Assembly: GCF_016545825.1 (NCBI RefSeq) | Contig: NC_052620.1 | Coordinates: 16,988,001 to 17,052,000 of the forward strand | Origin: Eucalyptus grandis | Lineage: Eukaryota; Streptophyta; Magnoliopsida; Myrtales; Myrtaceae | Reading direction: 5' to 3' | DNA length: 64,000 nucleotides | In this document: piece after piece, positions 1-30,779 of the stretch | How positions within the stretch are numbered: position 1 is the stretch's first letter | Layout: each line of letters begins with the position of its first letter | The notes under the pieces: generated by a model | The model's database searches: none | What the model was told of the DNA's origin: nothing | What the model saw: the letters and a program-made list of their open reading frames with translations, nothing else | Made by a program: the position numbers and the translations under genes

Positions 1-1220
1 CTCCTTGGTGGAAGCACGATAGTCTTGTCGAAAGTAAAAGTGTCGGCTAATCATGAAACCAAATGATTTAGAATCAGTGCACCATAGTCGGTAAGTTTTG
101 TCTTACGTGCATAATCTAAAGAAATTTACTTATTTGCTCCCGACTAAAGTGTACCACCATCTAGAATATCTCAATACTTGAAATCAAGAATAATGCACAA
201 GTTTCCCCCAATCAACTACTTCATGAGTCTCACACTCAATAGAAGTTTACGGAGATTGATTTGTCAGGTTCTTGGGCATGTTCACTGTCTCTGCCTTGAA
301 TTCCTTGCCCAAACTAGCACGTGAGAGCATACACCAAGCTCTCTAAAAAAGAGTTTTGTTACCATTGTGCCATGTCACTTTATCCCTCCATTTTGGCATA
401 ACTTTAGAAGCTTGTTATCATAGAAGTCCATATTATTATTGACAGGGATGGTCGGATCCAGGATGGGTTGTTCTAACCCTAGAACCTAAAATTGAACTAG
501 ATAGGGTCGATTCTCAATTTGTAAAACTAAGAATTGGCCCATGTGGTCCCGGATAAGACCAACTGGTCTGAGCCGATCTAGGAACCAGCTATGATGATTT
601 GTAAATTGCCCTTTTCCATCCACTTAATGGCATTTTAGTAATAAAACTTGTGAACTTTATGAATTAGGTGAGATGGGAGAGCCAAATCAAAGATTTCCTT
701 CAGTAGCAAAAGAAATGGGAGAGCAAGTCTATAGTTGGGCCCCGCGTTGCTTTTGGATTGTAGACTCATTCGCCCATCTCTTTCTCTTGTTTTGGGAACG
801 TGGTTTGTTTTACCCTTAATCCAAGATCAACTTGAACATATGTAGTGTCAATTAAGGGCACTAATTACGCATCTTTAGTCAAGGTGGTTCTTCTATAAGT
901 AAGCAAGTGAAGGGTGAGGTCACGGATTACAAAATGGAGAGCCCAAAAGATTGAATATTTACTCTTTAAGAGAATAAGAATTATTATTTAAAAAAAAAAA
1001 AAGCATATCGGTCCGATCCGCCAGTCTAGGTGGTTTAAGCCATATCGGCTATTATTGATTCTTAATTTTTGGAACCAAGAATTGCGTAGAACTGATCGGT
1101 ACCACTAATTGCTGGCTCTTAAAAAAGTTCATCTTCTTTCTTAAATGCTTCTAACCGATTCTTCTGACTTGTGCTTGAGGAAATGCACCTAGACCTTTCT
1201 CAATAAAACTCGATTGACCA
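1..1220. other. Non-genic, repeat-like flank
   Basis: No open frame here resembles a protein I recognise. The stretch around 450-1130, with its 'ggaacc' and 'gaccggtc'-like words, resembles the dispersed repeat seen again near 43040-43260 and 44850-44960. An A-tract lies at about 990-1001. The MATE unit array begins inside its repeated intron at about 1221. Confidence 0.5.
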
Positions 1221-1385
1221 TCCCCTCCCGCGGTCGATGGGCTGTGGGTGGCAATCCTACGGTGGTGGTCGGCGGTCAGGTGGCGGTCGTGCGGCGGTCG
1301 TGCGACGATCATGCCACGATATTAAAGAGATATGATAATTGGATGGTTACTATATGTAACTTATAGCAACTTTGTCATGAGCAAG

Positions 1386-2493
1386 TCTAGTGGAGTTTGC
1401 AGCTACAGGATATTCTATATTTTTATTTAATCAAGCCGTGAACATTTTTACATTTCCTTTGGCCACTGTAATAGCTTCACTTGTCGCCAAAGACAAAACT
1501 CTTGGAAAAACATGTGCCAACCTAGCAAGAGATGAAAGTATCAAGACATGCTCAACTAAAGGGATATAAATAGAAGAGTCGACGTATTATGATGAAAGTG
1601 ATTTATCTTTGGAGATAGATGGCCAATCCTATCTTGTTAGCGACGATGAAATCATAGAAATAAAAGAGCCATCTCATCTTGTTAGTGACGATGAAATCAT
1701 AGAAATAGAAGAGCCAAGGCTTGATGATGAAATCGTTCCAGCAGAAGGTACGTTTCAATCTCATCTTATTAGTTTCACCATTTAATCAAAAGGCTTCGCA
1801 AGATGTCGGTTTTTTAATGACCGTATTTTTGGATGACTAGATTTTACGGTACTTACATGTAGTAAGGAAAAAGAATATATCTCTTCCCCATCTACTTCAC
1901 TAGTAGTTGCCGGGATCCTTGGCGTTTTGCTACCATTATCTCTAGCATTTGGTGCCACAAGCTTCTTTTCTTTTATGGGCGTAAAATCTGTAAGTGTCTT
2001 TCTTCTAGATATAATTGTTGGATTGCCTTGACATTACATTAACTAATTGTAGCTATTGCTTGTTTGGATAAGCTCCCATACAAACCTCAACTAGGAGCTA
2101 CTTGCAATTGAGATCTATTGGAGCTCCTACTATTCTCCTTTATAATGCTATGCAAGGCGTGTTTCGAGACTTCAAGGATACTAGAACTCCTCTTTATGCC
2201 ACTGGTATGAGAGATAATATTCTTATTCTTCCTCATAAGTTATTTTTCCAATTGTTATGACAAAATGGTAAGTTTGCATTTGGTAAATTTTTCCAACCGC
2301 CGCATGACCGCCCCCTCCCGCAACCGGTGGGTTGTGGGTGGAAATCCTACGGTGGTGGTTGGCGGTGTGGTGGTCATGCGGCGATCGTGCGACAGTCGTG
2401 CGGCCGTCATGCGTTGATCGTGCAATGATATTCAAGAGATATGATAATTGGATGGTTACTATATGTAACTTATAACAACTTTATCATGGGCAG
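1386..2493 (+). pseudogene. MATE cassette unit 1 (damaged)
   Basis: Exon a runs 1386-1747, b 1841-1989, c about 2073-2204. The exon a acceptor reads 'gcaag' instead of 'gcag', moving the AG by one base. A TAA stop follows 'CSTKGI' at about 1567. The exon c acceptor has also slipped ('ataag'). Exon a holds two copies of the acidic 'SDDEIIEIEEP' motif. The exon b splice sites look intact. Confidence 0.8.
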
Positions 2494-3571
2494 GTCTAGT
2501 GGAGTTTGCATTTATAGGATATTCCATCTTTTTATTTAATCAAGCCGTAACCATTTTTACATTCCCTTTGGCCACTGTAACAGCTTCACTTGTCACCAAA
2601 GACAAAACTCTTGGAAAAACATGTGCCAACCTAGCAAGAGATGAAAGCATCAAGACATGCTCAACTGAGGAGATAGAAATGGAAGAGTCGACCCATGATG
2701 ATGAAGGTGATTTATCTCTAAACATAGATGGCCAATCTCATCTTGTTAGAGACGATAAAATCATAGAAATAGAAGAGCCATCTCATTTTATTAGCGATGA
2801 TGAAATCATAGAAATAGAAAAGTCAAGGCTTGATGATGAAATCGTTCTAGTAGAAGGTACGTTTCAATCTCATCTTATTAATTTCACCATTTAATCAAAA
2901 GACTTGGCAAGATGTTAGTTCTTTAATGATCGTTGTTTTTGGATGACTAGATTTTACGGCAACTACATGATCTAAGGAAATGGAATATATCTCTTCCCCC
3001 ATTTACTTCACTAGTAGTTGTCCGGATTCTTGGCGTTTTGCTACCATTATCTCTAGCATTTGGTGCTAAACGCTTCTTTGCTTTTATGGGTGTAAGATTT
3101 GTAAGTGTCTTTCTTCTAGATATAATTGTTGGATTGCTTTGACACTACATTGACTAATTGGAGCTGTTGCTTATTTGGATAGGCTCCCATAGAAACCTCA
3201 GCTAGGAGCTACTTGCGATTGAGATCCATTGGGGCTCCTACTATTCTCCTTTCTAATGCTATGCAAGGCGTGTTTCGAGGATTCAAGGATGCTAGAACTC
3301 TTCTTTATGCCACTAGTCTTATTCTTACTCATAAGTTATTTTTTCAGCCATTGTGATAAAATAGTAAATTTGCATTTGGTAAATTTTTCCAACAGCCGCA
3401 TGACCGCCCCCTCCCGCGGTCGGTGGGCTATGGGTGGCAATCCTACGGCGGCGGTCAGCAGTCGTGCGACGGTCGTGCGGCGGTTGTTCGACGATCATGT
3501 GGCAATATTCAAGAGATATGATAATTGGATGGTTACTATATTTAACTTATAACAACTTTGTCATGGGCAAG
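2494..3571 (+). pseudogene. MATE cassette unit 2 (damaged)
   Basis: Exon a (2494-2856) is open, with a good 'gggcag' acceptor and GTACGT donor. Exon b (2951-3100) is one base too long and has an in-frame TGA soon after its start ('ACATGATCT'). Exon c begins at 3183. Its usual donor (GGTATGAG) has been deleted near 3315, so the end of the cassette cannot splice normally. Confidence 0.8.
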
Positions 3572-4632
3572 TCCAGTGGAGTTTGCAGCTGCAGGATATT
3601 ATATCTTTTTATTTAATCAAGCCGTAAATATTTTTACATTCCCTTTGGCCATTGTAACGGCTTCACTTGTCGCCAAAGACAAAACTCTTGGAAAAACATG
3701 TGCCAACCTAGCAAGAGATGAAAGTATCAAGACATGCTCCATTGAAGAGATAGAAATGGAAGAGTCGACGCATGATGATGAAAGTGATTTATCTCTAGAG
3801 ATAGATGGCCAATCTCATCTTATTAGCAACGATGAAATCATAGAAATAGAAGAGCCAAAACTTGATATTCCAGCAAAAGGTACGTTCCAATCTTATCTTA
3901 TTAGTTTCACCATTTCATCAAAAGACTTGGCAATATGTCAGTTCTTTAATGACCGTACTTTTAGATGACCAGATTTTACGGCAACTACATGTAGTAAGGA
4001 AATGGAATATATCTCTTCCCCATCTACTTCACTAGTAGTTGTCGGGATCCTTGGCGTTTTGCTACCATTATCTCTAGCATTTGGTGCTAAAACCTTCTTT
4101 GCTTTTATGGGCGTTAGATCTGTAAGTGTCTCCCTTCTAGATATAATTGTTGGATTGCCTTGACACTACATTGACTAATTGCAGCTGTTGCTTGTTTGGA
4201 TAGGCTCCAATACAAATCTTAGCTAGAAGCTACTTTCGATTGAGATCCATTGGGGCTCCTGCTATTCTCCTTTCTAATGATATGCAAGGTGTGTTTCGAG
4301 GATTCAAGGATACTAGAACTCCTTTTTATGCTATTGGTATGAGAAATAATATTCTTACTCTTCCTCATAAGTTATTTTTCCAGCTATTGTGACAAAATGA
4401 TAAATTTGCATTTGGTATATTTTTTCAACCGCCGCATGACCGCCCCCTCCCGTGGTCGGTGGGTTATGGGCGGCAATTCTACGGTGGCAATCGTGCGGCG
4501 ATCGTGCGGCATTCGTGCGACGATCGTGCGGCATTTGTGCGGCGGTCGTGTGACGATTGTGCGACGATATTTAAGAGATATGATAATTGGATGGTTACTA
4601 TATATAACTTATAGCAACTTTGTCGTGGTCAG
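3572..4632 (+). pseudogene. MATE cassette unit 3 (best preserved b and c)
   Basis: Exons b (3973-4121) and c (4204-4336) are open, have canonical splice signals ('ccag', GTAAGT; 'atag', GTATGAG) and fit the family phases. Exon a (about 3572-3879) is open, but its acceptor is 'gcaag', one base displaced, which would shift the frame. The acidic loop is shorter here (one motif). With unit 4 this forms the first clear 2.13 kb dimer. Confidence 0.8.
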
Positions 4633-5696
4633 ATCTAGTGGAGTTTGTAGCTATAGGATATTACATCTTTTTATTTAATCATGTGAACATTTTTACATTC
4701 TCTTTGGTCATTGTAACAGCTTCACTTGTCGCCAAAGATGAAAGTCTTGGAAAAACATGTGCTAAGCTAGCAAGAGATGAAAGCATCAAGACATGCTCAA
4801 CTGAGGAGATAGAAATAGAAGAGTTGATGCATGATGATGAAAGTGATTTATCTTTAGAGATAGATGGCCAATCCCATCTTGTTAGTGACGATGATATTAT
4901 AAAAATAGAAGAGCCATCTTATCTTGTTAGCGACAATGAAATCATAGAAATAGAAGAGCCAATGGTTGATGATGAAATCGTTCTAGCAGAAGGTACGTTC
5001 CAATCTCATCTTATTAGTTTCACCATTTAATCAAAAGACTTGGCAAGATGTCAGTTGTTTAATTATCGTATTTTTGGATGACTAGATTTTATGATAACTA
5101 CATGCAACAAGGAAAGGGAATATATCTCTTCCCCATCAACTTCACTAGTAGTTGTTGGGATTCTTAGCATTTTATTACCATTATCTCTAGCATTTGGTGC
5201 TAAACGCTTATTTGCTTTTGTGGATGTAAGATCTGTAAGTGTCTTCTTTCTAGATAAAATTGTTGGATTGCTTTGACACTACATTAACTAATTACAGCTG
5301 TTGCTTGTTTGGATATGCTTCCAGACAAACCTCATCTAAAAGTTACTTGCGATTGAGATCCATTGGGGCTCTGCTATTCTCATTTCTAATGCTATGCAAG
5401 GCGGGTTTCGAGGATTCAAGGATACTAGAACTCCTCTTTATGCCAGTGGTTTGAGAGATAATATTTTTACTCTTCCTCATAAGTTATTTTTCAGCTAATG
5501 GTAAATTTGCATTTGGTAAATTTTTTCAACTGCCGCATGACCACCCCCTCCCACAACCGATGGGCGTTGGGCAGCAATCCTATGGCGGCGGTCAACGGTT
5601 GTGCGGTGGTCGTGCACCAATCGTGCGACAATATTCAAGAGATATGATAATTTGATGATTACTATATGTAACTTATAGCAACTTTGTCATGAGCAG
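4633..5696 (+). pseudogene. MATE cassette unit 4 (type B)
   Basis: Exon a (4633-4992) is open. Relative to type A it lacks one codon ('FNHVNIF' for 'FNQAVNIF') and has two acidic motifs ending 'SDNEIIEIEEP'. Exon b (5086-5234) is open with a good acceptor. The exon c acceptor AG has become AT ('ggatatgc'), and one C is missing in the 'GGGGCTC' stretch, so exon c (to 5448) is frameshifted. Confidence 0.8.
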
Positions 5697-6717
5697 GTCT
5701 AGTGGAATTTGCAGCTGCAGGATATTTTATCTTTTTATTTAATCAAGCCATGAACATTTTTATGTTCCCTTTCACCACTGTAACAGCTTCACTTGTCGCC
5801 AAGACAAAACTCATGGAAAAACATGTGCCAACCTAACAAGAGATGAAAGTATCAAGACATGCTCCATTGAAGAGATAGAAATGGAAGAGTTAACGCATGA
5901 TGATGAAAGTGATTTATCTCTAGAAATAGATGGCCAATCTCATCTTGTTAGCGACAATGAAATTATAGAAATAGAAGAGCCAAGGCTTGATGATGAAATC
6001 GTTCTAGCAGAAGGTACGTTCCAATCTCATCTTATTAGTTTCACAATTTAATCAAAAGACTTGGCAAGATGTCAGTTGTTTAATGATCGTATTTTTGGAT
6101 GACGAGATTTTATGATAACTATATGTAACAAGGAAAGGGAATATATCTCTTCCCCATCAACTTCACTAGTAGTTGTTGGGATTCTTAGCATTTTATTACC
6201 ATTATCTCTAGCATTTGGTGCTAAACGATTATTTGCTTTTGTGGATGTAAGATCTGTAAGTGTCTTCTTTCTAGATAAAATTGTTGGATTGCTTTGACAC
6301 TACATTAACTAATTGCAACTGTTGCTTGTTTGGATATGCTTCCGAGACAAACCTCGGCTAAAAGTTACTTGCGATTGAGATCCATTGGGGCTCTGCTATT
6401 CTCATTTCTAATGCTATGCAAGGCGTGTTTCGAGGATTCAAGGATACTAGAACTCCTCTTTATACCACTGGTTTGAGAGATAATATTTTTACTCTTCCTC
6501 ATAAGTTATTTTTCAGCTAATGGTAAATTTGCATTTGGTAAATTTTTCAACTGCCGCATGACCACCCCCTCCCACGACCGATGGGCATTGGGCGGCAATC
6601 CTATGGCGGCGGCCGACAGTCGTGCAGTGTTCGTGCACCGATCGTGCGACAATATTCAAGAGATATGATAATTTGATGATTACTATATGTAACTTATAGT
6701 AACTTTGTCATGAGCAG
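5697..6717 (+). pseudogene. MATE cassette unit 5 (A/B mosaic)
   Basis: Exon a (5697-6013) is of type A but has lost one A near 5801 ('GCCAAGAC' for 'GCCAAAGAC'), a frameshift; its length of 317 nt is one short of the family 318. Exons b (6107-6255) and c (to 6470) are of type B, and exon c lacks its acceptor AG. The A-then-B composition within one unit suggests recombination or gene conversion between unit types. Confidence 0.8.
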
Positions 6718-7788
6718 GTCCAATGGAATTTGCAGTTGCAGGATATTCTATCTTTTTATTTAATCAAGCCGTGAACATTTTTATGTTCCCTTTCGCCACT
6801 GTAACAGCTTCACTTGTCGCCAAAGACAAAACTCTTGGAAAAACATGTGCCAACCTAGCAAGAGATGAAAGTATCAAGACATGCTCCATTGAAGAGATAG
6901 AAATGGAAGAGTTAACGCATGATGATGAAAGTGATTTATCTCTAGAGATAGATGGCCAATCTCATCTTGTTAGCGACGATGAAATTATAGAAATAGAAGA
7001 GCCAAGGCTTGATGATGAAATCGTTCCAGCAGAAGGTACGTTCCAATCTCATCTTATTAGTTTCACAATTTAATCAAAAGACTTGGCAAGATATCAGTTC
7101 TTTAATGATCGTATTTTTGGATGACCAAATTTTACGGCAACTACATGTAGTAAGGAAATGGAATATATCTCTTCCCCATCTACTTCACTAGTAGTTACCG
7201 GGATCCTTGGCGTTTTGCTACTATTATCTCTAGCATTTGGTGCTAAAACCTTCTTTGCTTTTATGGGCGTTAGATCTGTAAGTGTCTCCCTTCTAGATAT
7301 AATTGTTGGATTGCCTTGACACTACATTGACTAATTGCAACTGTTGCTTGTTTAGATAGGCTCCAGTACAAACCTTAGCTAGAAGCTACTTGCGATTGAG
7401 ATCCATTGGGGCTCCTGCTATTCTCCTTTCTAATGCTATGCAAGGTGTGTTTCGAGGATTCAAGGATACTAGAACTCCTCTTTATGCTATTGGTATGAGA
7501 GATAATATTCTTACTCTTCCTCATAAGTTATTTTTCTAGCTATTGTGACAAAATGATAAATTTGCATTTGGTATATTTTTTCAACCGCCGCATGACCGCC
7601 CCCTCCCTTGGTTGGTGGGTTGTGGGCGGCAATTCTATGGCGGTGGTCGTGCGGCGATCGTGCGGCATTCGTGTGACGATCGTGCGGCATTCGTGCGGCG
7701 GTCGTGTGACGATTGTGCGACGATATTCAAGAGATATGATAATTAGATGGTTACTATATGTAACTTATAGCAACTTTGTCATGGTCAG
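6718..7788 (+). pseudogene. MATE cassette unit 6 (type A)
   Basis: Exon a (6718-7035, 318 nt) is fully open with a good acceptor and donor. The exon b (7129-7277) reading frame is open, but its acceptor is AA instead of AG ('gaccaaat'). Exon c (7360-7492, 133 nt) is open with 'atag' acceptor and GTATGAG donor. Units 6+7 and 8+9 are near-identical 2.13 kb dimers. Confidence 0.82.
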
Positions 7789-8856
7789 GTCTAGTGGAGT
7801 TTGTAGTTGCAGGATATTATATCTTTTTATTTAATCATGTGAACATTTTTACATTCCCTTTGGTCATTGTAACAGCTTCACTTGTCGCCAAAGACAAAAG
7901 TCTTGGAAAAACATGTGCTAAGCTAGCAAGAGATGAAAGCATCAAGACATGCTCAACTGAGGAGATAGAAATAGAAGAGTTGATGCATGATGATGAAAGT
8001 GATTTATCTTTAGAGATAGATGGCCAATCTCATCTTGTTAGTGACGATGATATTATAAAAATAGAAGAGCCATCTTATCTTGTTAGCGACAATGAAATCA
8101 TAGAAATAGAAGAGCCAATGGTTGATGATAAAATCGTTCCAGCATAAGGTACGTTCCAATCTCATCTTATTAGTTTCACAATTTAATCAAAAGACTTGGC
8201 AAGATGTCAGTTGTTTAATGATCGTATTTTTGGATGACTAAATTTTATGATAACTACATGTAACAAGGAAAGGGAATATATCTCTTCCCCATCAACTTCA
8301 CTAGTAGTTGTTAGGATTCTTAGCATTTTATTACCATTATCTCTAGCATTTGGTGCTAAACGATTATTTGCTTTTGTGGATGTAAGATCTGTAAGTGTCT
8401 TCTTTCTAGATAAAATTGTTGGATTGCTTTGACACTACATTAACTAATTGCAATTGTTGCTTGTTTGGATATGCTTCCAGACAAACCTCAGCTAAAAGTT
8501 ACTTGCGATTGAGATCCATTGGGGCTCCTGCTATTCTCATTTCTAATGCTATGCAAGGCGTGTTTCGAGGATTCAAGGATACTAGAACTCCTCTTTATAC
8601 CACTGGTTTGAGAGATAATATTTTTACTCTTTCTCATAAGTTATTTTTTCAGCTAATGGTAAATTTGCATTTGGTAAATTTTTTCAACTGCCGCATGACC
8701 ACCCCCCCTCCCACGACCGATGGGCGTTGGGCGGCAATCCTATGGCGGCGGTCGACAGTCGTGCGGTGGTCGTGCACCGATCGTGCGACAATATTCAAGA
8801 GATATGATAATTTGATGATTACTATATGTAACTTATAGCAACTTTGTCATGAGCAG
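7789..8856 (+). pseudogene. MATE cassette unit 7 (type B)
   Basis: Exon a (7789-8148) ends with an in-frame TAA two codon positions before the donor ('GCATAAG' for 'GCAGAAG', 8145-8147). The exon b (8242-8390) frame is open, but its acceptor is AA. Exon c (to 8605) has the type-B acceptor loss (AT). Confidence 0.82.
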
Positions 8857-9916
8857 GTCCAGTGGAATTTGCAGCTGCAGGATATTCTATCTTTTTATTT
8901 AATCAAGCCATGAACATTTTTATGTTCCCTTTCGCCACTGTAACAGCTTCACTTGTCGCCAAAGACAAAACTCTTGGAAAAACATGTGCCAACCTAACAA
9001 GAGATGAAAGTATCAAGACATGCTCCATTGAAGAGATAGAAATGAAAGAGTTAACGTATGATGATGAAAGTGATTTATCTCTAGAGATAGATGGCCAATC
9101 TCATCTTGTTAGCGACGATGAAATTATAGAAATAGAAGAGCCAAGGCTTGATGATGAAATCGTTCCAGCAGAAGGTACGTTCCAATCTCATCTTATTAGT
9201 TTCACAATTTAATCAAAAGACTTGGCAATATGTCAGTTCTTTAATGATCGTATTTTTGGATGACCAAATTTTACGGCAACTACATGTAGTAAGGAAATGG
9301 AATATATCTCTTCCCCATCTACTTCACTAGTAGTTACCGGGATCCTTGGCGTTTTGCTACCATTATCTCTAGCATTTGGTGCTAAAACCTTCTTTGCTTT
9401 TATGGGCGTTAGATGCGTAAGTGTCTCCCTTCTAGATATAATTGTTGGATTGCCTTGACACTACATTGACTAATTGCAACTGTTGCTTGTTTAGATAGGC
9501 TCCAATACAAACCTTAGCTAGAAGCTACTTGCGATTGAGATCCATTGGGGCTCCTTCTATTCTCCTTTCTAATGCTATGCAAGGTGTGTTTCGAGGATTC
9601 AAGGATACTAGAACTCCTCTTTATGCTATTGGTATGAGAGATAATATTCTTACTCTTCCTCATAAGTTATTTTTCCAGCTATTGTGACAAAATGATAAAT
9701 TTGCATTTGGTATATTTTTTCAACCGCCGCATGACCGCCCCCTCCCTTGGTCAGTGGGTTGTGGGTGGCAATTCTACGGTGGCGGTCGTGCGGCATTCGT
9801 GCAACGATCGTGTGGCATTCGTGCGGTGGTCGTGTGACGATTGTGCGACAATATTCAAGAGATATGATAATTAGATGGTTACTATATGTAACTTATAGCA
9901 ACTTTGTCATGGTTAG
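8857..9916 (+). pseudogene. MATE cassette unit 8 (type A)
   Basis: Exon a (8857-9174) is open and spliceable. Exon b (9268-9416) has the AA acceptor shared with unit 6 and ends 'RC' rather than 'RS' before GTAAGT. Exon c (9499-9631) is open with good splice sites. It is clearly a recent duplicate of unit 6. Confidence 0.82.
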
Positions 9917-10984
9917 GTTTAGTGGAGTTTGTAGCTGCAGGATATCATATCTTTTTATTTAATCATGTGAACATTTTTACATTCCCTTTGGTCATTGTAA
10001 CAGCTTCACTTGTCGCCAAAGACAAAAGTCTTGGAAAAACATGTGCTAAGCTAGCAAGAGATGAAAGCATCAAGACATGCTCAAGCGAGGAGATAGAAAT
10101 AGAAGAGTTGATGCATGATGATGAAAGTGATTTATCTTTAGAGATAGATGGCCAATCTCATCTTGTTAGTGACGATGATATTATAAAAATAGAAGAGCCA
10201 TCTTATCTTGTTAGCGACAATGAAATCATAGAAATAGAAGAGCCAATGGTTGATGATGAAATCGTTCTAGCAGAAGGTACGTTCCAATCTCATCTTATTA
10301 GTTTCACAATTTAATCAAAAGACTTGGCAAGATGTCAGTTGTTTAATTATCGTATTTTTGGATGACCAGATTTTATGATAACTACATGTAACAAGGAAAG
10401 GGAATATATCTCTTCCCCATCAACTTCACTAGTAATTGTTGGGATTCTTAGCATTTTATTACCATGATCTCTAGCATTTGGTGCTAAAAGCTTATTTGCT
10501 TTTGTGGATGTAAGATCTGTAAGTGTCTTCTTTTTAGATAAAATTGTTGGATTGCTTTGACACTACATTAACTAAGTGCAACTGTTACTTGTTTGGATAT
10601 GCTTCCATACAAACCTCAGCTAAAAATTACTTGCGATTGAGATCCATTGGGGCTCATGCTATTCTCATTTCTAATGCTATGCAAGGCGTGTTTCGAGGAT
10701 TCAAGGATACTAGAACTCCTCTTTATGCCACTGGTTTGAGAGATAATATTTTTACTCTTCCTCATAAGTTATTTTTCCAGCTAATGGTAAATTTGCATTT
10801 GGTAAATTTTTTCAACTGCCGCATGACCACCCCCCTCCCACGACCGATGGGCGTTGGGCGGCAATCCTATGGCGGCGGTCGACAGTCGTGCGGTGGTCGT
10901 GCGCCGATCGTGCGACAATATGCAAGAGATATGATAATTTGATGATTACTATATGTAACTTATAGCAACTTTGTCATGGGCAAG
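9917..10984 (+). pseudogene. MATE cassette unit 9 (type B)
   Basis: Exon a (9917-10276) is open, with 'gttag' acceptor and GTACGT donor. Exon b (10370-10518) has an AG acceptor but a TGA stop where sister copies read TTA ('CCATGATCT', near 10465). Exon c (to 10733) has the type-B acceptor loss. It is a close duplicate of unit 7, without unit 7's TAA. Confidence 0.82.
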
Positions 10985-11963
10985 TCCAGTGGAGTTTGCA
11001 ACTGCATGATATTCTATCTTTTTATTTAATCAAGCTGTGAACATTTTTATGTTCCCTTTCGCCACTGTAACAGCTTCACTTGTCGCCAAAGACAAAACTC
11101 TTGGAAAAACATGTGCCAACCTAGCAAGAGATGAAAGTATCAAGACATGCTCCATTGAAGAGATAGAAATGGAAGAGTTAACGCATGATGATGAAAGTGA
11201 TTTATCTCTAGAAATAAATGGCCAATCTCATCTTATTAGTTTCACAATTTAATCAAAAGACTTGGCAAGATGTCAGTTCTTTAATGATCGTATTTTTGGA
11301 TGACCAAATTTTATGGCAACTACATATAGTAAGGAAAGTGAATATATCTCTTCCCCATCTATTTCACTAGTAGTTGTCGGGATCCTTAGCGTTTTGCTAC
11401 CATTATCTCTAGCATTTGGTGCTAAATGCTTCTTTGCTTTTATGGGCGTAAGATCTGTAAGTATCTTCCTTCTATATATAATTGTTGGATTGCCTTGACA
11501 CTACATTGACTAATTGTAGCTGTTGCTTGTTTAGATAGGCTCCCATACAAACCTCAGCTAAGACCTATTTGCGATTGAGATCCATTGGGGCTTCTGCTAT
11601 TCTCATTTCTAATGCTATGCAAGGTGTGTTTCAAGGATTCAAGAGTACTAGAACTCCTCTTTATGCCACTGGTATGAGAGATAATATTCTTATTCTTCCT
11701 CATACACTATTTTTCCAACTGTTGTGACAAAATGGTAAATTTGCATTTGGTAAATTTTTCCAACCGTCGCATGATCACCCCCTCCTACAGCTGGTGGGCT
11801 ATGGGCGGCAATCCTACGGCGACGGTTGGCGGTCATGCAGCAGTCGTGCGGCGGTCGTGCGACAATCGTGCGGCGGTCATGCGATGATCGTGTGATGATA
11901 TTCAAGAGATATGATAATTGGATGGTTACTATATGTAACTTATAGCGACTTTGTCATAGGCAG
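10985..11963 (+). pseudogene. MATE cassette unit 10 (internal deletion)
   Basis: The exon a acceptor is displaced ('gcaag'), and a GGA-to-TGA change gives a stop near 11008. The acidic loop and the exon a donor have been deleted between two copies of CCAATCTCATCTT (junction near 11230), joining 'GQSH' directly to 'LISFTI'. The exon b equivalent (11308-11456) has an AA acceptor. Exon c (11539-11671) looks spliceable. Confidence 0.82.
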
Positions 11964-12320
11964 GTCCAGTGGAGTTTGCAGCAGTTACAGGATATTCTAT
12001 CTTTTTATTTAATCAAGCCGTGAACATTTTTACATTCCCTTTGGCCACTTTAACAGGTTCACTTGTCACCAAAGACAAAACTCTTGGAAAAACATGTGCC
12101 AACCTAGTAAGAGACAAAAGTATCAAGACATGCTCAATTGAGTTGATAGAAATGGAAGAGTCGACGCATGATGATGAAAGTGATTTATCTCTGAAGATAG
12201 ATGGCCAATCTTATCTTGTTAGCGACGATAAGATCATAGAAATAGAAGAGCCAAGGCTTGATGATGAAATCGTTCCAATAGAAGATACGTTCAAATCTCA
12301 CCTTATTAGTCTCATCACTC
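11964..12320 (+). pseudogene. MATE cassette unit 11 (truncated last unit)
   Basis: Only exon a is present. It is open and has one extra codon ('FAAVTGYS'), but the donor GGTACG has become GATACG, so it cannot be spliced at the usual place. Homology to the array stops at about 12315, and exons b and c are absent. The frame continues into unrelated sequence and stops at 12424. Confidence 0.8.
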
Positions 12321-13430
12321 CATCGTCGGCCCTTCTCGGCTACGGCGGGGAGGCGGCGGCAGCTGAGGGCTCAGCCCTGAGCCGCCTCCTTTTCCTTAAT
12401 ATTTTTAAAATTTTAAAATTTTAAAATTTTTAATTTTTTAATATTTGTATTTGTATTTTTAAATGTTTTAAATAAATTTAAATTTAATTTAATTAATTTT
12501 TATATTAATTTTTTACCACATCCGCACCAAAACGACGCCGTTTTGCACTTGCTTCGTCGGAAAATTGACACGTCAGCGTTTTGGCCGGATTAACACTTAA
12601 GAGATCCATTTTGCTCCGATTTTGATAGTTAAGTAATACTTTGTACCAACTTTTGGCACTCTAGGTGTCCGAGTGACTTGAAGGAACCGGAGAAAAACCC
12701 CATGTTGACCCTAATTTAAAATTTGATATAGATTATTTGGAATTTTGATATTTTATTTGACTAGTTTTTGGGATTTCGGAGGCGCAAAAAAGACCATCCC
12801 GCTTGAAAAACAGGTCAGACCCCGGGCTATGCAAATTACTCGGCAAGTTCACCTCCGAATACCTGGCTCCTAGAGTTTTGAATTTTGGATTTATTTGCCT
12901 AATCCAGTGGGTGTCCATGCTTATATTGAGTGGACATATTTGGTCGGACATCTGAAAGCCTCAACGGACTTCTAGCCACTTGAAATGTTTGTAATGACTT
13001 CTGAGCTTGTTTTTTTTTTATGACTTGGGTTGCCCATTGCCGTAGGCATTAGAGAGGTACACTACATACACTTGCTAAGAACTCTTGCACACACTTTGCA
13101 ATAAAAACTCTTGCGAGATTGAATTTGTGAGAGAGATTTTTTATAAAAGAGTTCACCCCATTTGTAAATGAGAGCTAGCTCCATCATAAGCCAACCGTAG
13201 AAAGATGTTCGAGTATATTAGATTGAGCGTAACTCTCGAACAATCTCAGGGAGGGGAGGAGGCAACGACTTAGAGCCTAACCATTATAAGTCAAGTTGAG
13301 CATTTCTTTATCCCTACTGTTTCAATTTATGTGCATGTCACGTGTTTGAATTTGCCTGACTCGGATTTTTGCATAAATACTTGATATTGTGTTGAATTTT
13401 CCATATATGTTCACAACAGTTTGTATGAGA
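12321..13430. other. AT-rich intergenic DNA with LTR-like remnants
   Basis: No gene seen. A short GC-rich patch (12325-12390) precedes a very AT-rich stretch. 'AAAACGACGCCGTTTT', a palindromic word, lies near 12530. From about 12960 to 13440 the sequence reads like a decayed copia 5' LTR and leader. 'TATGAGAGCGGG' near 13425 resembles the initiator-Met tRNA primer-binding site usual for copia (TGGTATCAGAGC), but it is degenerate. Confidence 0.45.
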
Positions 13431-13529
13431 GCGGGTGCTCGATTGATTCTTGCTTGACATTGTTTGTTCTTATCAAATTTTTTGAGCTATAGATCATGGC
13501 ATGACACGTTGGAAAGTCATTTAGGCCAT

Positions 13530-14530
13530 CTCTATTTTTTGAAATGGATTACAACTATCGGAAGGCTCGTATAAAAATTTCTATCCAATTTCAAGAATAT
13601 GACGTCCTCATATGCCTAGTAGGATTGAACTTGAAACAATCGTTCGTAAGAATGAAAAAGAATAGAGCGCTATTTGAACGATAAGGCAACGAATCTATTG
13701 TCGTGCTCTAGATGCTAATGAATGTAATTGCATCTCGACATTTTCTGGTGCTAAAGAAATATGGGAAAAACTTAAATTGCCGCTTGAAGGGACAAGTCAA
13801 GTTAGAAAGTCTAGAATTAGTATGCTCACCCATTGAGAAAAGAACAATGCAAATGCCATGACTTTCGTACGGCACTTGAGTGTCAAATTTTTTTTTCACT
13901 CACTTAAGTATCATATCAGAGTAAAATTGATCCTTTAAGTACTATTTCTAGCAAATCATCCAACGTGAACTTTTTTTATTAATTTCTCATATGAGGTGGA
14001 TTTTTTTTTTTTTTGCCCTTTTCGAGGGTTGGCAACGGTTACTAGCTACCCTCGCTTGCTATGAAACCGGGTGATTCTTGCTAGACTTGAAAAAGGGGAA
14101 AAGAAAAAGAAAAAGAAAATCAAAAAAATAAAAGAATAATTAAAAAATCATCCACGACAGTACCAATGAAGTCATGAATGATGACTGGCATCCATATCGG
14201 ATTTTACGACAAGACAAATCATCAATGGCATTCAAGTGATCATTTTTTCAAATTTGTGGCACTCAAGCAAGCGGAAAAAAGTTATTGCCCTCAAATGAGC
14301 GCCATACAAATGAGGGTGAGTGGATTGCTAATATATGTGTACTCGGCTGACCGTCATTATTCGTAGATTGAGATCACTAGGCAAGGTTGATCCTCAAGAA
14401 AAGCTATTATGAACATTGCCAACATATGGGAGCCTTAAGTGTCGGCAATTGATGAGCTTCCTGGGAAGGTTTAAGATTTAAAGCAGGACTTAATGGCTTC
14501 TGGATTGGTGCCTAAGGAGAGGATATTCAG
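13530..14530 (+). mobile_element. Ty1/copia gag fragment, interrupted by a MITE
   Basis: Translation of 13540-13830 gives copia Gag (UBN2-type) features: 'NYRKARIKIFIQFQEYDVL', then 'VVLALDANE', 'ISTFSGAKEIWEKLKLPLEG' and 'SRISMLTH', with frame breaks and stops. After a ~450 bp inverted-repeat insertion, the same Gag resumes at about 14310-14480 in another frame, with 'RRLRSLGKVDPQEKLL' and 'TLPTYGSLK'. This is a dead internal fragment; the call rests on remembered copia Gag motifs. Confidence 0.7.
13850..14305. mobile_element. MITE-like inverted-repeat element inside copia gag
   Basis: The left end ('ggcacttgagtgtcaaattt') and right end ('aaatttgtggcactcaagca') are imperfect inverted complements over about 50 bp. 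The middle is AT-rich with no coding potential. It splits the copia gag at a point where the Gag translation resumes on the other side. I could not fix the exact target duplication. Confidence 0.55.
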
Positions 14531-22303: not shown

Positions 22304-23181
22304 AATAACCAAAAAATAAATAAATGAATTTTTGAAATATTTTGGCACCCTAAAAGTAACATGCAATAGTTAGGCACTAATATAGTCGTATCCCGAAAAG
22401 ATCTTTAGGCAGAAATTTAGATGTTAATAAATAAGATATTTACACAAGAAAAGATAATTCATATGAGAGACGGGATTAGACTTTGTAAGAAAGATCCTAA
22501 CGAGCATCATCTAATTATGCTCTTTGATTAAGCTCCTGAAATCCTAATCACGTTGGAAAATTCTTAAATGAAAAACTAGATGTCTACATAGCAATAGCAT
22601 GGTAGTTTCCACTTACGAAATTTTCAAAATAGAACAGAAAAAAGCAGTGAAAATGAACCAAAGGTCCAAAGTAACATGAAATCGACTATTTTATGTTATA
22701 GTCCAAAAAATATCATATTTATTTATTTATTCCCACGTATAAATGAATAGCCTTCTCTGAGCAATTATTACACGACCTTGGTATATGTGAATTCGATGTG
22801 TATGTGTCGTTACATTATATGGGTCCCACGTCATGGGACATATACTTTTGAGCAATATTTTTAGTCACAAAAATTTGTATCTCGCAACGCGTGAATATCT
22901 GGGTAGTTCGTTTCAAAATATGAGGAGAAGGACGAAGATTGCCGTTTCAAAACGCCCATCTCCAAAAACTCTCTCCTTTCCAACCTGGACGACAACACAA
23001 CAGCGAACCTTCGCGGTCGGCGCACGTAAGCTTACTTTGCCGTTTGAATTGGACGAAGCCTTAAGGCAAGATACCGCGTTCGTCAACCGCCATGGCTAGT
23101 CGGTTTTTTCGTCTCTCTAGAAGAAGAAAATTCTTGGGTGCTCCCTCAACCGCGCATCTCACGTCCCGGTATTTCTCTCTA

Positions 23182-23188
23182 TATAAAT
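23182..23188 (+). promoter_or_regulatory. TATA box of CYSTM copy 1
   Basis: TATAAAT lies 99 bp before the ATG, inside pyrimidine-rich DNA. The expected transcription start is about 30 bp downstream. A GAGAA-repeat leader (23252-23286) precedes the start codon. Confidence 0.6.
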
Positions 23189-23286
23189 CCACCTCTCCTC
23201 CCTCGTCTCTCTCGCCTTCGTCTTCGCCCGCTCCGAAACGCTTGCAAGAGAAGAGAAGAGAAGAGAAGAGAAGAGAAGAGAGAGAG

Positions 23287-23872
23287 ATGAGCACTTACTA
23301 CAACCAGAATCATCCGCCGGTCGGCGCCCCTCCCCCGCAAGGTAACCTTGTTCTCTTGGATTCGCCATGCTTTTCTGCTATTTCTCAAATTCATCATCTG
23401 TAGTCTCCTGGGAACGTGTAGTATGTTCGTTTCTGATTTTTGCGGGTCTTTCTTGGTATCGTAAAACAAAAAATTTTACTTGCAGGGTACCCGAAAGTCG
23501 AAGGCTATCCTCCTCCAGGGTATCCGGTGCAGGGTTACGCGCCACAGGGGTATCCTCCGCAGCAAGGATATGGCCAGCCGGCCCAGCCCTACTACGAGGA
23601 GCAGCGCCGCCGGAAGGACACCGGCTTTCTTGAAGGATGGTAAAGCACGCGACTAAATTTGCTTGTCAAAAAGTATAATATAATCAAATCAAGTGTGAAT
23701 CTTTTAGTTTCTTGTTCAAATCTACTTTGTCGGTTTCCAGCAGCTTGTTGTTATGGGCGTGCGTATTTTCCTTGCTTCCGCTCCTGAACTCATGAACGCG
23801 CGTGTTCCATCTCGGTTTTTTTGCAGCTTAGCGGCACTTTGCTGTTGCTGTCTGCTGGATGCGGTTTTCTGA
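23287..23872 (+). CDS. CYSTM-family (cysteine-rich transmembrane tail) protein, copy 1
   Basis: Three exons, 23287-23341, 23486-23639 and 23827-23872, with GT-AG introns, give an 84-residue protein. The N-terminal part is Gly/Tyr/Pro/Gln-rich, with 'GYPPPGYPVQGYAPQGYPPQ' repeats. The C-terminus is 'DTGFLEGC' followed by 'LAALCCCCLLDAVF', the diagnostic CYSTM tail: a short cysteine-studded helix thought to anchor in membranes. The Cys of 'EGC' is created across the exon 2/3 junction (TG then C). Without splicing the frame would read 'EGW' and stop, so exon 3 is essential. Family members are linked to stress tolerance; the exact role is unknown. The start is the first ATG after a purine-rich leader. 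A near-identical paralogue lies at 27177. Confidence 0.9.
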
Positions 23873-25020
23873 GGTGGGATCGAGGCAACGGCGCGGATTT
23901 AGGGAAAAAGATCGTTCTGGTTTCCATCTCTGCTGGTTGGACGGCGGAGGAGTTAGTGTCGGGAACTATCAGGTGATTTGGCTGTGATGTCTTTATTTAT
24001 TGAACGATCTCTGTTGAATCGTTGATGTATATATCTGGAGACTATTGTTACTTTTCTCATTCACGGATTATGAGACATGTGTCTTTTCTGAGCTCGTTTG
24101 ATTTATCTATGCCCCTTTCTAATGGCTAATTTTCTCACAATAAGGTTAACTTACACTTTAAACCAATGCTCGCTAGCGCAGTATATATGCCGATTAAGTC
24201 TTTTCACCCTCGCAACAAGACTTTCTACCCCCCCAACTCCCCCTTAAAAAAAAAAAAAAAAAAAAAAAAAATAAAACCTTCTTTTCTTGTTTCGCTTTGT
24301 CAGCTTTGCGTCTACGTGATGAGAAATCGATTATTTTGGCAAAACCATGACACAGCAATCCTAGGATTTTTTTACCGATTTTGTCCTCACGTTTTTTGCG
24401 CTCTACCACGGTTGCTTCGCTTTCCCCTCGTTCCCTCGAATCGCAGGGTCAAGAACGAGAATTAGGGCTGGGTTGGTTGAGTGTTCTAGCCAATTTGATG
24501 GGGCTGGTTTCTGGTGCGAGGATATAATGAACAAACTGAGGGCTAGAGTAGACATAGTCTGGTTTCTGGGCTTTCATGGGGTCTTTGTAATGCAAGTTGG
24601 ACTTAACAGATGGACTTAATAAAAGTGCATGGGCCAGGGGCTTGGCTTGGAGGAATTGGATCGAGCCCGGTGCATATAATTAACATCCTTTCCAATCATT
24701 TGATGAATTTAAGCCCTTTATTTTAATTTTTTTTTTTGTATTTTGCATTTTGGTTTTATTTATTAGTACCACCAAAAATCCCAAATTACATTCACCGCAA
24801 CACGTGCTCAAATTTTTTTTTTTTGTGACACAAAAAAAGAATCTCAATCTCGTACTTGTGTGACACATTTACCTCCGTTAAGGTCTATCAATGAGCACCA
24901 TAAAAAATAAAAAATAAAAACACTCACATAGACTCTGGAAAGCTTATAAATTGATATGACACCCACATGACTAAAGTGAATAAAAATGACGTCATTGATA
25001 CCCACATGACTAAAGTGAAA
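23873..25020. other. 3' flank of CYSTM copy 1
   Basis: No second gene seen. A poly-A run occupies about 24246-24271 and is absent from the copy-2 homologue. The CGATC at 24005-24009 is the empty target site of the solo LTR in copy 2. T-tracts lie at 24725-24740 and 24808-24825. Confidence 0.6.
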
Positions 25021-25029
25021 TAAAAACGA

Positions 25030-26885
25030 CGTTGTTTCGCCATGCAAGAGACAAAACAAGACCGATCATCTTGTGAGGAAGAGAATCGAGAAAGTAAGGA
25101 GAAAGATGTCTGGGTAGGCAGGCACAGGACCCACTACTTCCTAATCGATTGCTCCATTGGATTACCGAATCGAGGTTAGGATTGTAGCGCTTATGAACGA
25201 TCCCGATCAAGTGTAGGAGTCTGGTACTTTGAATTGACAGACGATTATGCATCGAAAGGAATAAGAACTTAACATTGGGTTCCAAAATTGATGAAATGAA
25301 TCAAATTAATGATACCACGAATCTCTCCGAAAGAACAAGAGCCGGTGTTTGATTTGCCAAACAGAAATAATCAACTGCAATGACCAAATATAAATCGCTT
25401 GGAAAAGAGTGGAAATAATTTGCAAGGAAATTAAATTGTTTTTCGGATGTTTGATCGTGTCTAGTGCTCTTCAGATGTGCTCCTTCTATCGTACATGGGT
25501 GATTGACCTCTCTCAACCATCGTTCCCACTTTTCAAATCCACATTTCAACCCCATATTTGATGGTATAATAGTTCCTTCCTTAGGAGGTCGATTACATTA
25601 ATAGTGCTCTATAGATGTGATCCTTTTATCATACCCGGGCGATGACCACTTGACTTCAATTATAGATCAACACTTTTGATAATTGTTGCCACCTGAGTTT
25701 TAGTATAATAACTCTTTCTAGTAAGTGTATCTGATTTGATTTTAGCCAAACTGTGTGAGTTGACATCAGTGCTTCTCAATTCGACTGAGATTGAATTGAC
25801 TGACCTCGACTTTCTATTATTATGATGGAAGAAAACTACTACTGGCATGTTAACTTAGTTCTATTGGTTTTTCACGGTCAATGCTAGTGTTGATCGTCTA
25901 ATATGTCAAGTGTTGGCCAATATATTGTTTACTCTTGTTGACACCAACGTGTTTGATTAATTAGTCGATCCTCATAGCCTACGTGACTTCGTATAGTCGA
26001 TGATTTTGCTTTATTACTATGGCCCAATATAAGGAATTTATTTTTCCCTCAAGGGTTTAGCACTTTCTCATCAATAATTGCCCGAAGTTATATCATACTC
26101 AAAACCATCGTTTGTGTTCATTTGATGGCATCAATTCGCATTAACCGTAACTCTTTGACATCATAATTTGCTTTTTAAGGGTGCCAACAAATTTCTTTTT
26201 ATTTGTGGACAGACTTTTGATTGTTGATCCCCATAAGTTGAGGCGACTTTCAAGAAGTTATTGCATGATCCGTGAACTATTTAGACTAATATCATCTTAA
26301 CCATTAACCTTATGAATTCCACCATGAGAACCACACCATCAATATGATGGCTTTTATTTATATAAATTATAAATCATATTGTATTTTTTCGGGACATTAA
26401 GAAAAGTGAAATGTTAAAATAATTATGAAATTATATAAAATCACTATCCACTAGTCTAAAAGTTTAAAATTTTAATATGGAGGCTTAATTTAATATTTAA
26501 TTATTTTAACATGTTCCCTTAGACGTTTATACAATCTTATTAAATGTGCTTTGAAATTTTTAAAATTTATTAGATGAAAAGTGTTTACTGTCATGTTTAG
26601 TTTACTTAATTAAGTTCCAAATAATTCCTCCAAGAGGGCGCGTCTTTCCCTAAAGAGAAGGCCCAGACTCCCGACTCCATCCGTCTAAACTGCAGACATA
26701 AGAGTCTCCCACGTGTTAATCCACGCAGCTTTCCTCCTGTCCTGTCGTCGTCATCTGGTCTGTCTCCCTCTATGTCATCAAGTCTGGCCATCTCCCTCTC
26801 TTACAGTCTTACTCTCCTTCGTGTGGCCCCGTTACAAAAAGCTTCTCTCGCCTTTTTGGGCAGGCCCGCTTCATTTTCTCTCCTT
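25030..26885. repeat. Duplicated segment X, copy 1
   Basis: It matches 38935-41243 almost throughout, from 'gccatgcaagagacaaaac' to 'cccgcttcattttctctc'. It contains 'tacaaaaagcttctctcgcc' close to its right end, which abuts the CYSTM copy-2 block; copy 2 of X abuts a NAGS first exon. The junctions share 'CTCTC' microhomology. Open frames inside are short and unrecognised. It may be a displaced promoter region (inference). Confidence 0.85.
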
Positions 26886-27000
26886 TCCAACGTGAACGAC
26901 GAAACAACAGTCAACCTTCGTGGTCGGAGGACGTAAGCTTACTTTGCCATTTGAATTGGACGGAGCTACCGCGTTCGTCAACCGCGCATCTCACGTCCCG

Positions 27001-27142
27001 GTCTTTCTCTCTATATAAATCCACCTCTCCTCCCTCGTCTCTCTCACCTTCGCCTTCGCCCGCTCCGAATCGTCTTTCTCTCTATATAAATCCACCTCTC
27101 CTCCCTCGTCTCTCTTACCTTCGTCTTCGCCCGCTCCGAATC
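27001..27142 (+). promoter_or_regulatory. Tandemly duplicated core promoter/leader, two TATA boxes
   Basis: A 71-bp unit occurs twice (27001-27071, 27072-27142) with only a few differences. Each copy starts 'GTCTTTCTCTCTATATAAAT' and runs through a CT-rich leader to 'CGCTCCGAATC'. CYSTM copy 1 has a single such unit (from about 23170). The result is two TATA boxes, at 27014-27020 and 27085-27090, before one ATG at 27177. Confidence 0.85.
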
Positions 27143-27176
27143 GCTTGCAAGAGAAGAGAAGAGAAGAGAGAGAGAG

Positions 27177-27790
27177 ATGAGTACTTACTACAACCAGAAT
27201 CATCCCCCGGTCGGCGCCCCTCCCCCGCAAGGTAACCTTGTTCTCTTGGATTCGCCATGCTTTTCTGCTATTTCTCAAATTCATCACCTGTAGTCTCCTG
27301 GGAATGTGTAGTATGTTCGTTTCTGATTTCTGCGGGTCTTTCTTGGTATCGTAAAACAAAAAATTCTACTTGCAGGGTACCCGAAAGTCGAAGGCTATCC
27401 TCCTCCAGGGTATCCGGTGCAGGGTTACGCGCCACAGGGGTATCCTCCACAGGGATATCCTCCACAGCAAGGATATGGCCAGCCGGCCCAGCCCCACTAC
27501 GAGGAGCAGCGCCGCTGGCAGGACACCGGCTTTCTTGAAGGATGGTAATGCACGCGACTAAATTTGCTTGTCAAAAAGTATAATATAATCAAATCAAGTG
27601 TGAATCTTTTAGTTTCTTGTTCAAATCTACTTTGTATTTGAGCCAGTCGGTTTCCAGCAGCTTGTTGTTATGAGCGTGCGTATTTTCCTTGCTCGGCTCC
27701 TGAACTCATGAAAATGCGTGTGTTCCATCTCGGCTTTTTTGCAGCTTCGCGGCAATTCGCTGTTGCTGTCTGCTGGATGAGGATTCCTGA
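27177..27790 (+). CDS. CYSTM-family protein, copy 2 (altered tail)
   Basis: Exons 27177-27231, 27376-27544 and 27745-27790 have the same phases as copy 1 and encode 89 residues. Exon 2 has gained one 'GYPPQ' unit (15 nt). The tail now reads 'GFLEGC' then 'FAAIRCCCLLDEDS'. The first of the four tandem cysteines is Arg, and the hydrophobic end 'AVF' has become charged 'EDS'. The stop position is unchanged. Reading frame and splice sites are intact, so it is a potential gene, but the tail changes should weaken membrane insertion. It may be neofunctionalising or decaying. Confidence 0.75.
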
Positions 27791-27922
27791 GGTGGGCTCG
27801 AGGCAATGGCGCGGATTTAGGAAAAAGATCGTTCTGGTTTCCATCTCTGCCGGTTGGACGGCGGAGGAGTTAGTGTCGGGAACTATCAGGATGATTTGGC
27901 TGTGATGTCTTTATTTATTGAA

Positions 27923-29262
27923 CGATCTGTTGTTAAAATATGTGTTCGAAATGGGTTGATCAATGAAATCGGATTGAGTAAAAACAACTCGGACTTTGAG
28001 GCGTGATATCACTTTCTTTAAGAATTTATTTGTCTCACAACGTTGCTAATGGTCACCGGCAAAAATCCTCCAGGGATACAACAAAGTTTCTCGGATGAGA
28101 ATCTAAATAAAGAATTTAGTATTTATAGCCTCTCTAAACAATCGAAAAATTGACTGCTATTTTTTTGGAAAGAGGACTTGAAAATGACAACACTATTTCT
28201 TTCCGAAAATAATGAAGTATGTTTCGCAACTCTTCGTGAAAATTGCGAACAAACATGTCTTTAGAAAATTGTTCGGATAAACCAATGCGACTCTTCGGAA
28301 GAAGTCGAAAAACGAACAATTGCAATCCTTCGGATAAATTAAAACCAAATAAGTAATTTTCCAAAAGTTGTCTTGAAAAGACACAAATAAAATTTGGAAT
28401 AATTTTTTTTTTTTTTTTAAATAGAATTTCGAATTTTCATTTATATTTCATTTCCGAAATTCTCAAATTAAAAGGCAACCTTTGAACTACAATATAAAAT
28501 AAAATAAAAAATAAATAAATAAAAAAGCAAGAGATTAATGCTAATTAAACCGCGGGCGCGCAGGCGTGCAAAGTGCTAAGTGCGCCAAATAATCGCGCAC
28601 CCGCACGCGGGTATGGTGGGGTCTAGCCCCACCTAATCACTCCTTTAACTACAAAAGGGAAATTCCTCATTAATAAATTAATCCTCCTGCTCCCACATTT
28701 TCTATGTGGGACAAAATAAAAGGCACTCATTTTGTTTTAACAAACAAAATTCCAACAATCCCCCACTTTGTTTGTAAAACAAAAGCCAAAGTTTCAGTAA
28801 GATTAATATACATACATAAAGATCTCTTTCGAGTTAAACCTTTACTTAGTGCAAGTATATCAAAGCTCTATCAAAGTGACAAGTAGCTCGGCTTTAAACT
28901 TGTACTTTTATGTAATAGAACCGGACATACCACACATACACTAACCTCTTGTTTCAGCGAGAATTTCTATATTACTTCGCACTATTATGGCATTGTGCTT
29001 GATCCTGTTTCATGAGCTCTCTAGAAAGCAACCCTCACTTTCGTAAGGAGCGGCACCACTTCTAAGCTCATATAGGTGAAGTATCTACCATGTGTTTCTG
29101 TTACTATCAACACACTACAAACTTGTATCATACTTCATTAAGAATTCAATTCAGCCTACAAAACGTAACAGACAATACTGACTTCTCATATCAGGGCTAT
29201 GTGAGTATCAAACAATCACATTCAATAACTTGTTCTTACCCATTAAACCTTGTAACACGATC
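27923..29262. mobile_element. Solo LTR (1.33 kb) with 5-bp TSD
   Basis: The element 27928-29257 starts TGTTGTTA and ends TTGTAACA (TG...CA), flanked by CGATC at 27923-27927 and 29258-29262. The paralogous site at 24005 has one CGATC and no insert. There is no coding sequence. The inner words 'acaatcccccactttg' and 'gaggcgtgatatcactttc' mark a plant LTR family, and a second, rearranged member lies at 34956-36480. Confidence 0.9.
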
Positions 29263-29917: not shown

Positions 29918-29918
<1 letters not shown>

Positions 29919-29974
<56 letters not shown>

Positions 29975-30534: not shown

Positions 30535-30779
30535 TTGCATTTTGGTTTTATTTATTAGTACCACCAAAAATCCCAAATTACATCCACCGTAACACGTGCT
30601 AAAAAAATTTATGACAAAAAAAAAAAAGAATCTCAAACTCGTACTTGTGTGATATATTTACCTACATTAGGGTTTATCAATGAGCACAAAAAAAAAAAAA
30701 AAAAAACTAACATAGACTCTAGAAAGCATACGAAGTTGATATGACAACCACATGACATCGTTTTGACTAAATAATTATC

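What the first reader, a model, noticed from the sequence alone, without database searches (positions are those of the whole stretch)
1221..12320. Eleven-fold tandem array of a symmetric MATE exon cassette
Only three internal exons of an FRD3-type MATE gene are multiplied, with their introns. Cassette phases are 1 at both ends: exon c ends 'GCCACTG' and exon a begins 'GTCCAGTGG', giving A-T-G-P-V-E in frame. Reiteration is therefore frame-neutral in principle. Most units show splice-site or stop damage, so the simplest view is a decaying array, but a transcript chaining intact exons is possible.
Basis: partly seen in the sequence, partly recalled or inferred. Interest (0 to 1): 0.78.

Follow-up and report, generated by a model that had tools for sequence, protein, structure and literature searches.

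The report
Decayed tandem array of transporter exons
In a eucalypt genome, a piece of a citrate-transporter-like gene holding three exons was copied about ten times in a row by uneven recombination, and its pattern of damage shows no sign that the copies are kept as working protein-coding sequence.

Summary
Window 1215-12317 carries ten units (948-1103 bp) plus an eleventh that ends just after exon a. Each unit is a DETOXIFICATION-43/FRD3-like MATE exon trio (a, b, c) with introns; outer phases are 1 and 1, so repetition is frame-neutral. The host is almost certainly Eucalyptus grandis: its NAGS1 protein matches the window exon by exon, with mismatches at exon ends. No other convincing MATE exon was found in the 64 kb.

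Interpretation: a non-processed partial-gene pseudogene array grown by unequal crossing-over. None of ten units has all six splice dinucleotides and three open exons; 15 of 62 dinucleotides are broken. Exons diverge like introns; stops, dN/dS and splice losses fit a neutral simulation. Unit 5 is a B-to-A recombinant. Splice-site losses shared within subfamilies show that copying continued after decay. A cassette spans three membrane helices, an odd number. Cryptic in-frame acceptors could reopen units 3, 6 and 8, so transcription is not excluded; no RNA data or genome-wide search was available. Ordinary, though well preserved.

The parts
1215..2280 (+). Unit 1: exons a 1385-1747, b 1841-1989, c 2072-2204
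   Evidence: acceptors a and c broken, stop in a
2281..3376 (+). Unit 2: exons a 2494-2856, b 2951-3100, c 3183-3315
   Evidence: exon b stop and frameshift, exon c donor lost
3377..4412 (+). Unit 3: exons a 3571-3879, b 3973-4121, c 4204-4336; all three frames open
   Evidence: acceptor a broken, cryptic in-frame AG 6 nt downstream
4413..5513 (+). Unit 4 (A type): exons a 4633-4992, b 5086-5234, c 5317-5448
   Evidence: acceptor c broken, frameshift in c
5514..6535 (+). Unit 5: B-type 5' part joined to A-type 3' part; switch at about 5986-6078 (from alignment columns 560-652)
   Evidence: diagnostic columns; frameshifts in a and c, acceptor c broken
6536..7568 (+). Unit 6 (B type): all three frames open, acceptor b broken
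7569..8671 (+). Unit 7 (A type): stop at last codon of a, acceptors b and c broken
8672..9707 (+). Unit 8 (B type): all three frames open, acceptor b broken
9708..10799 (+). Unit 9 (A type): stop in b, acceptor c broken
10800..11747 (+). Unit 10 (B type in its 5' part, mixed in its 3' part): deletion removes end of exon a and its donor; acceptors a and b broken; stop in a
11748..12317 (+). Unit 11, partial: spacer and exon a only (11964-12284), donor AT instead of GT; similarity ends 33 nt into the following intron
4486..4568 (+). Example of the GC-rich minisatellite (11-bp unit, GGCGATCGTGC-like) in the inter-unit spacer; reported as arrays in units 4, 7, 9 and 11, shorter in the others

Best explanation
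A fragment of a divergent DTX43/FRD3-like MATE gene (three internal exons, their introns and parts of the flanking introns) was duplicated in tandem, then expanded and homogenised by unequal crossing-over to ten and a half units. It carries no detectable coding function now and was still being duplicated after splice sites had been lost. Shown: unit structure, phases, damage, neutral-like divergence, a recombinant unit, two alternating subfamilies, no other convincing MATE exon in the window. Inferred: the first duplication event, the parent gene, and absence of expression.
For: Introns are retained and the exon limits agree with family proteins, so it is a DNA-level copy, not a retrocopy. 0 of 10 complete units are intact; 15 of 62 splice dinucleotides are broken, neutral expectation 7.9 +/- 4.1. 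Mean pairwise p-distance is 0.090, 0.112 and 0.089 in exons a, b, c and 0.097 and 0.088 in the two introns. Pooled dN/dS is 0.58, 0.68, 0.81 against simulated neutral means 0.66, 0.81, 0.87; stops 3, 2, 0 against 4.3, 1.3, 4.0. Unit 5 switches once from B to A type; in U4-U10 mean identity is 93.8% at lag 2 against 89.8% at lag 1. The c-acceptor loss shared by units 4, 5, 7, 9 and the b-acceptor loss (CAA) shared by 6, 8, 10 put copying after decay.
Against: Exon c has no stop in ten copies (expected 4.0; 10% of simulations at or below). In units 3, 6 and 8 all three exons stay open and a single cryptic in-frame acceptor could restore each. The dimer period is not clean: lag 5 gives 93.9% (two pairs), lag 3 91.7%. 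NG86 on consensus-rooted simulations is a rough test with low power for short exons. Neither the parent gene nor copies elsewhere could be examined: all 11 calls to the genome search did not complete.
Confidence: 0.88

Rival explanations
1. The array is part of a live gene: first and last MATE exons lie outside the window and a transcript chains intact or cryptically spliced cassettes into a long membrane protein, as repeated cassettes do in apolipoprotein(a) (recalled comparison).
For: Symmetric 1-1 phases; 23 of 31 exon copies have open frames, 13 of 31 also have intact ends, and a 7-exon frame-compatible chain exists if skipping is allowed; cryptic in-frame acceptors in units 3, 6, 8.
Against: Exons diverge like introns; neutral-like stops and dN/dS; no convincing MATE exon in the 1.2 kb upstream or about 51 kb downstream held in the window; each cassette adds three helices, so an odd number of extra cassettes would invert the downstream topology (model, inference); none of the 120 listed hits (of 686, only the 7999 candidates sharing most words scored) looks like a chain of these units, and a single cassette found no protein at E <= 0.001. 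Proteins longer than about 1040 residues were never candidates.
Confidence: 0.04
2. The array is non-coding but transcribed, giving antisense or small RNAs that act on DTX43-family genes.
For: Tandem repeats of gene fragments can yield small RNAs (general knowledge); all units lie in the same orientation.
Against: No RNA data; the listed Myrtaceae DTX42/43 proteins are 39-50% identical over about a third of the query, P0025 70% over 13%, so near-identical targets among those listed are unlikely; no conservation signal.
Confidence: 0.06
3. A mobile element captured the MATE fragment and the tandem growth followed capture.
For: No other exon of the gene was found adjacent; the spacer holds GC-rich minisatellite sequence unlike the rest of the unit.
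Against: No inverted repeat brackets the array among the 25 longest of 139 pairs shown for 1-14500; the flanks 1-1214 and 12318-14500 find no second copy in the window. Helitron ends were not tested.
Confidence: 0.12
4. Assembly artefact: a single copy stuttered by the assembler.
For: Tandem repeats are prone to misassembly (general knowledge).
Against: Every pair of units differs, by 1.9 to 16.1%, with private indels and a recombinant unit.
Confidence: 0.02

Closest known systems
Duplicated (non-processed) partial-gene pseudogenes in tandem, grown by unequal crossing-over
   Same: Introns kept, disabling mutations, neutral-like divergence, a recombinant unit, alternating subfamilies
   Different: Unusual only in that the amplified block is a phase-symmetric set of internal exons present in about 10.5 copies
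DETOXIFICATION 43 / FRD3 clade of MATE transporters (PF01554)
   Same: Exon trio aligns to residues about 103-305 of E. grandis DTX43 (P0014), including the E-D-F-x-A-T-T-C-like join of exons a and b (by eye)
   Different: No first or downstream exons in the window; cassette only 46-50% identical to the leading Myrtaceae proteins, 70% over about 80 residues to the partial E. globulus P0025
Tandem symmetric-exon cassette genes such as apolipoprotein(a) kringle IV (recalled, not fetched)
   Same: Phase-symmetric exon set repeated head to tail with introns
   Different: Those repeats are spliced and translated; here splice sites are lost and no constraint is seen

Membership tests
DTX43/FRD3-type MATE transporter gene | Sequence homology to the clade | tested here: met
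   686 proteins at E <= 0.001; the 120 listed carry PF01554; PDB chain 9l7l_A (HvAACT1) at 3.1e-23; Pfam MatE 26.4 bits for unit 8 (cut-off 24.9) but 21.5 for unit 3, the two units tested
DTX43/FRD3-type MATE transporter gene | Complete gene encoding the whole transporter | tested here: not met
   Ten Myrtaceae proteins by tblastn: nothing outside the array better than E = 0.88; only 1.2 kb upstream is held
Tandem partial-gene pseudogene array | Multiple head-to-tail copies with introns | tested here: met
Tandem partial-gene pseudogene array | Disabling mutations in the copies | tested here: met
   0 of 10 complete units intact at the homologous splice sites; cryptic sites could reopen 3
Tandem partial-gene pseudogene array | No purifying selection | tested here: met
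   rough test of low power, exon c without stops in 10% of simulations or fewer
Tandem partial-gene pseudogene array | Not expressed as protein | not testable with these tools
   no RNA or proteome data
Functional tandem exon duplication | Phase-symmetric repeated exons | tested here: met
Functional tandem exon duplication | Repeated exons keep splice sites and frames | tested here: not met
   15 of 62 dinucleotides broken; 8 of 31 exon copies out of frame or stopped; 13 of 31 usable
Transposon-captured gene fragment with terminal inverted repeats | Inverted repeats bracketing the array | tested here: inconclusive
   none among the 25 of 139 inverted repeats shown; the other 114 not seen

The most novel reading that the evidence does not exclude
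A still-transcribed array in which cryptic acceptors and exon skipping yield multi-cassette MATE-derived membrane peptides, or regulatory RNAs, whose copy number differs between trees.
Probability: 0.05. Interest if true: 0.7.

Novelty: new member of a known kind. Interest (0 to 1): 0.22.

Why it matters
It is a clean worked example of how a block of internal exons can become a repeat: the order of damage and copying can be read from shared splice-site losses, and one unit still shows the crossover. It warns annotators that phase symmetry and mostly open exons (23 of 31 copies) do not by themselves mean a coding repeat. It does not change any known mechanism.

Tried and rejected
Hairpin-driven amplification: the spacers of 8 of 11 units, folded as single-stranded DNA, gave z-scores from -3.06 to +0.61, one below -2 and one at -1.99, so not consistent. 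Terminal inverted repeats around the array: none among the 25 of 139 shown. Array-derived annotated proteins: a 594-residue chain of cassettes found ordinary DTX-type MATE proteins in the 120 rows listed of 686, and a 200-residue single cassette found none at E <= 0.001 among 543 candidates. Two soybean entries of over 940 residues head; the one read (P0001) looks by eye like two MATE genes fused in one model, not repeated cassettes. Literature: eight searches listed no paper that names such an array in its title or abstract start; I read passages of PMC4419795 and saw the rest only as search listings. The parent gene and genome-wide copy number were sought with the genome search, which did not complete.

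Full report
What is there. A unit-against-window blastn finds head-to-tail copies from 1215 to 12317 and nowhere else in the 64 kb. Cut at the repeat boundary they are ten units of 948-1103 bp (unit 1 starts inside the spacer) and a partial eleventh; pairwise identities run from 83.9 to 98.1%. Each complete unit carries spacer, exon a, intron, exon b, intron, exon c and the start of the following intron. The 11-bp GC-rich minisatellite reported by the repeat finder in units 4, 7, 9 and 11 lies in the spacer; three versions of the motif, up to one mismatch allowed, gave only two isolated matches outside the array.

Frames. Exon a ends after one base of a codon, b starts by completing it and ends in phase 0, c ends after one base; spliced units 3 and 8 give 197 and 200 residues without a stop and chain on in frame. 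The placement of the exon b start is supported by family proteins that share an E-D-F-x-A-T-T-C-like stretch across the a-b join (by eye). P0017 of E. globulus seems to contain a translated intron between exons b and c that resembles the array's intron there (by eye).

Identity. A chained cassette query finds MATE proteins of the DTX42/43 type; the leading Myrtaceae hits are 46-50% identical over a third of the query, that is over one cassette, and the partial E. globulus protein P0025 is 70% identical over 13% of the query. Of the two units tested, Pfam MatE passes its cut-off for unit 8 and not for unit 3; HvAACT1 (by its name the barley transporter, recalled), a solved relative, matches at 3.1e-23. 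Ten Myrtaceae proteins searched against the window by tblastn give nothing outside the array better than E = 0.88. The species follows from the NAGS1 gene at 41-55 kb: the E. grandis protein P0121 matches in nine exon pieces with identical runs of 133, 70, 50, 150, 53, 46, 38, 32 and 30 residues; mismatches lie at the ends of the alignments where exons stop. P0121's longest contig is 44.1 Mb and those of the E. grandis DTX43 proteins P0014 and P0033 are 60.5 and 38.8 Mb, so the array is probably not next to either; this is an inference from contig lengths.

Damage. Taking GT/AG at the homologous places, 15 of 62 dinucleotides are broken: acceptor a in units 1, 3, 10; donor a in 10, 11; acceptor b in 6, 7, 8, 10; acceptor c in 1, 4, 5, 7, 9; donor c in 2. 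Stops or frameshifts hit 8 of 31 exon copies (1a, 2b, 4c, 5a, 5c, 7a, 9b, 10a). No complete unit escapes, and 13 of 31 exon copies are usable. Against this, cryptic in-frame acceptors exist: 6 nt downstream in exon a of unit 3, and 63 or 66 nt downstream in exon b of units 6, 7, 8 and 10, which leave the frame open; with one such site each, units 3, 6 and 8 could be read through.

Selection. Mean pairwise p-distance is 0.090, 0.112 and 0.089 for exons a, b, c, against 0.097 and 0.088 for the two introns, 0.090 for the stretch after exon c and 0.141 for the spacer. I simulated neutral HKY evolution on trees of the 5' and 3' parts, starting from the consensus, 400 times per exon: dN/dS 0.58, 0.68, 0.81 observed against 0.66, 0.81, 0.87, with 35, 39 and 51% of simulations at or below the observed value; stops 3, 2, 0 against 4.3, 1.3, 4.0, with 46, 81 and 10% at or below. 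Broken splice dinucleotides, 15, lie at the high side of the neutral 7.9 +/- 4.1 (the simulation counts substitutions only, while two of the 15 are deletions). The test is rough, ignores indels and has little power for exons of 130-150 bp, but no constraint is visible.

History. Units 4, 7, 9 (A) and 6, 8, 10 (B; unit 10 is mixed in its 3' part) alternate; within units 4-10 mean identity is 93.8% at lag 2 against 89.8% at lag 1, though lag 5 (two pairs) gives 93.9% and lag 3 91.7%. Unit 5 is B-like up to alignment column 560 (two exceptional columns, 225 and 530, and one that fits neither, 255) and A-like from column 652 on, the mark of a single exchange near the end of exon a. The c-acceptor loss is common to the A-type 3' parts (4, 5, 7, 9), and the b-acceptor loss CAA to units 6, 8, 10. 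By parsimony these losses precede the copying that made those units: the array kept growing as dead sequence.

Would a cassette protein work? In an AlphaFold2 model of E. grandis DTX43 (P0014, mean pLDDT 72.3) the stretch that the cassette covers, about 104-305, holds helices 104-153, 225-247 (with a short 249-255) and 265-276/279-294, which I read as three membrane helices. An odd number of extra cassettes would then invert the rest of the protein. This is an argument, not a test.

Context. For eight gene families (MATE not among those named in the passages read) E. grandis is described as rich in recent tandem duplications, with partial sequences and pseudogenes among the copies (PMC4419795, passages). 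A barley-tribe partial gene duplicate was reported to confer pathogen resistance (PMC6092874, search listing only), so partial copies need not be inert; nothing here suggests that for this array.

Noticed in passing
41304-41702 and 47915-48335: Two candidate first exons for NAGS1: the E. grandis protein model P0121 uses the 41.3 kb copy (133/133 identical), while Syzygium and Rhodamnia NAGS N-termini match the 48 kb copy better (P0122 residues 82-126: 88.9% there, 57.8% at 41.6 kb). The E. grandis model may have the wrong first exon, or the exon is truly duplicated.
   Followed up: partly
22970-30756 and 38931-41240: Nested segmental duplications, e.g. 25031-26679 with 38931-40607 at 90%, 22970-24010 with 26877-27928 at 87%, 24278-24721 with 29459-29905 at 95.5%.
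   Followed up: no
1631-1716, 4876-4961, 8027-8117, 10155-10245: A 45-bp in-frame internal repeat inside exon a, present in units 1, 2, 4, 7, 9 of the unit alignment and not in the others, lengthens the acidic loop by 15 residues.
   Followed up: partly
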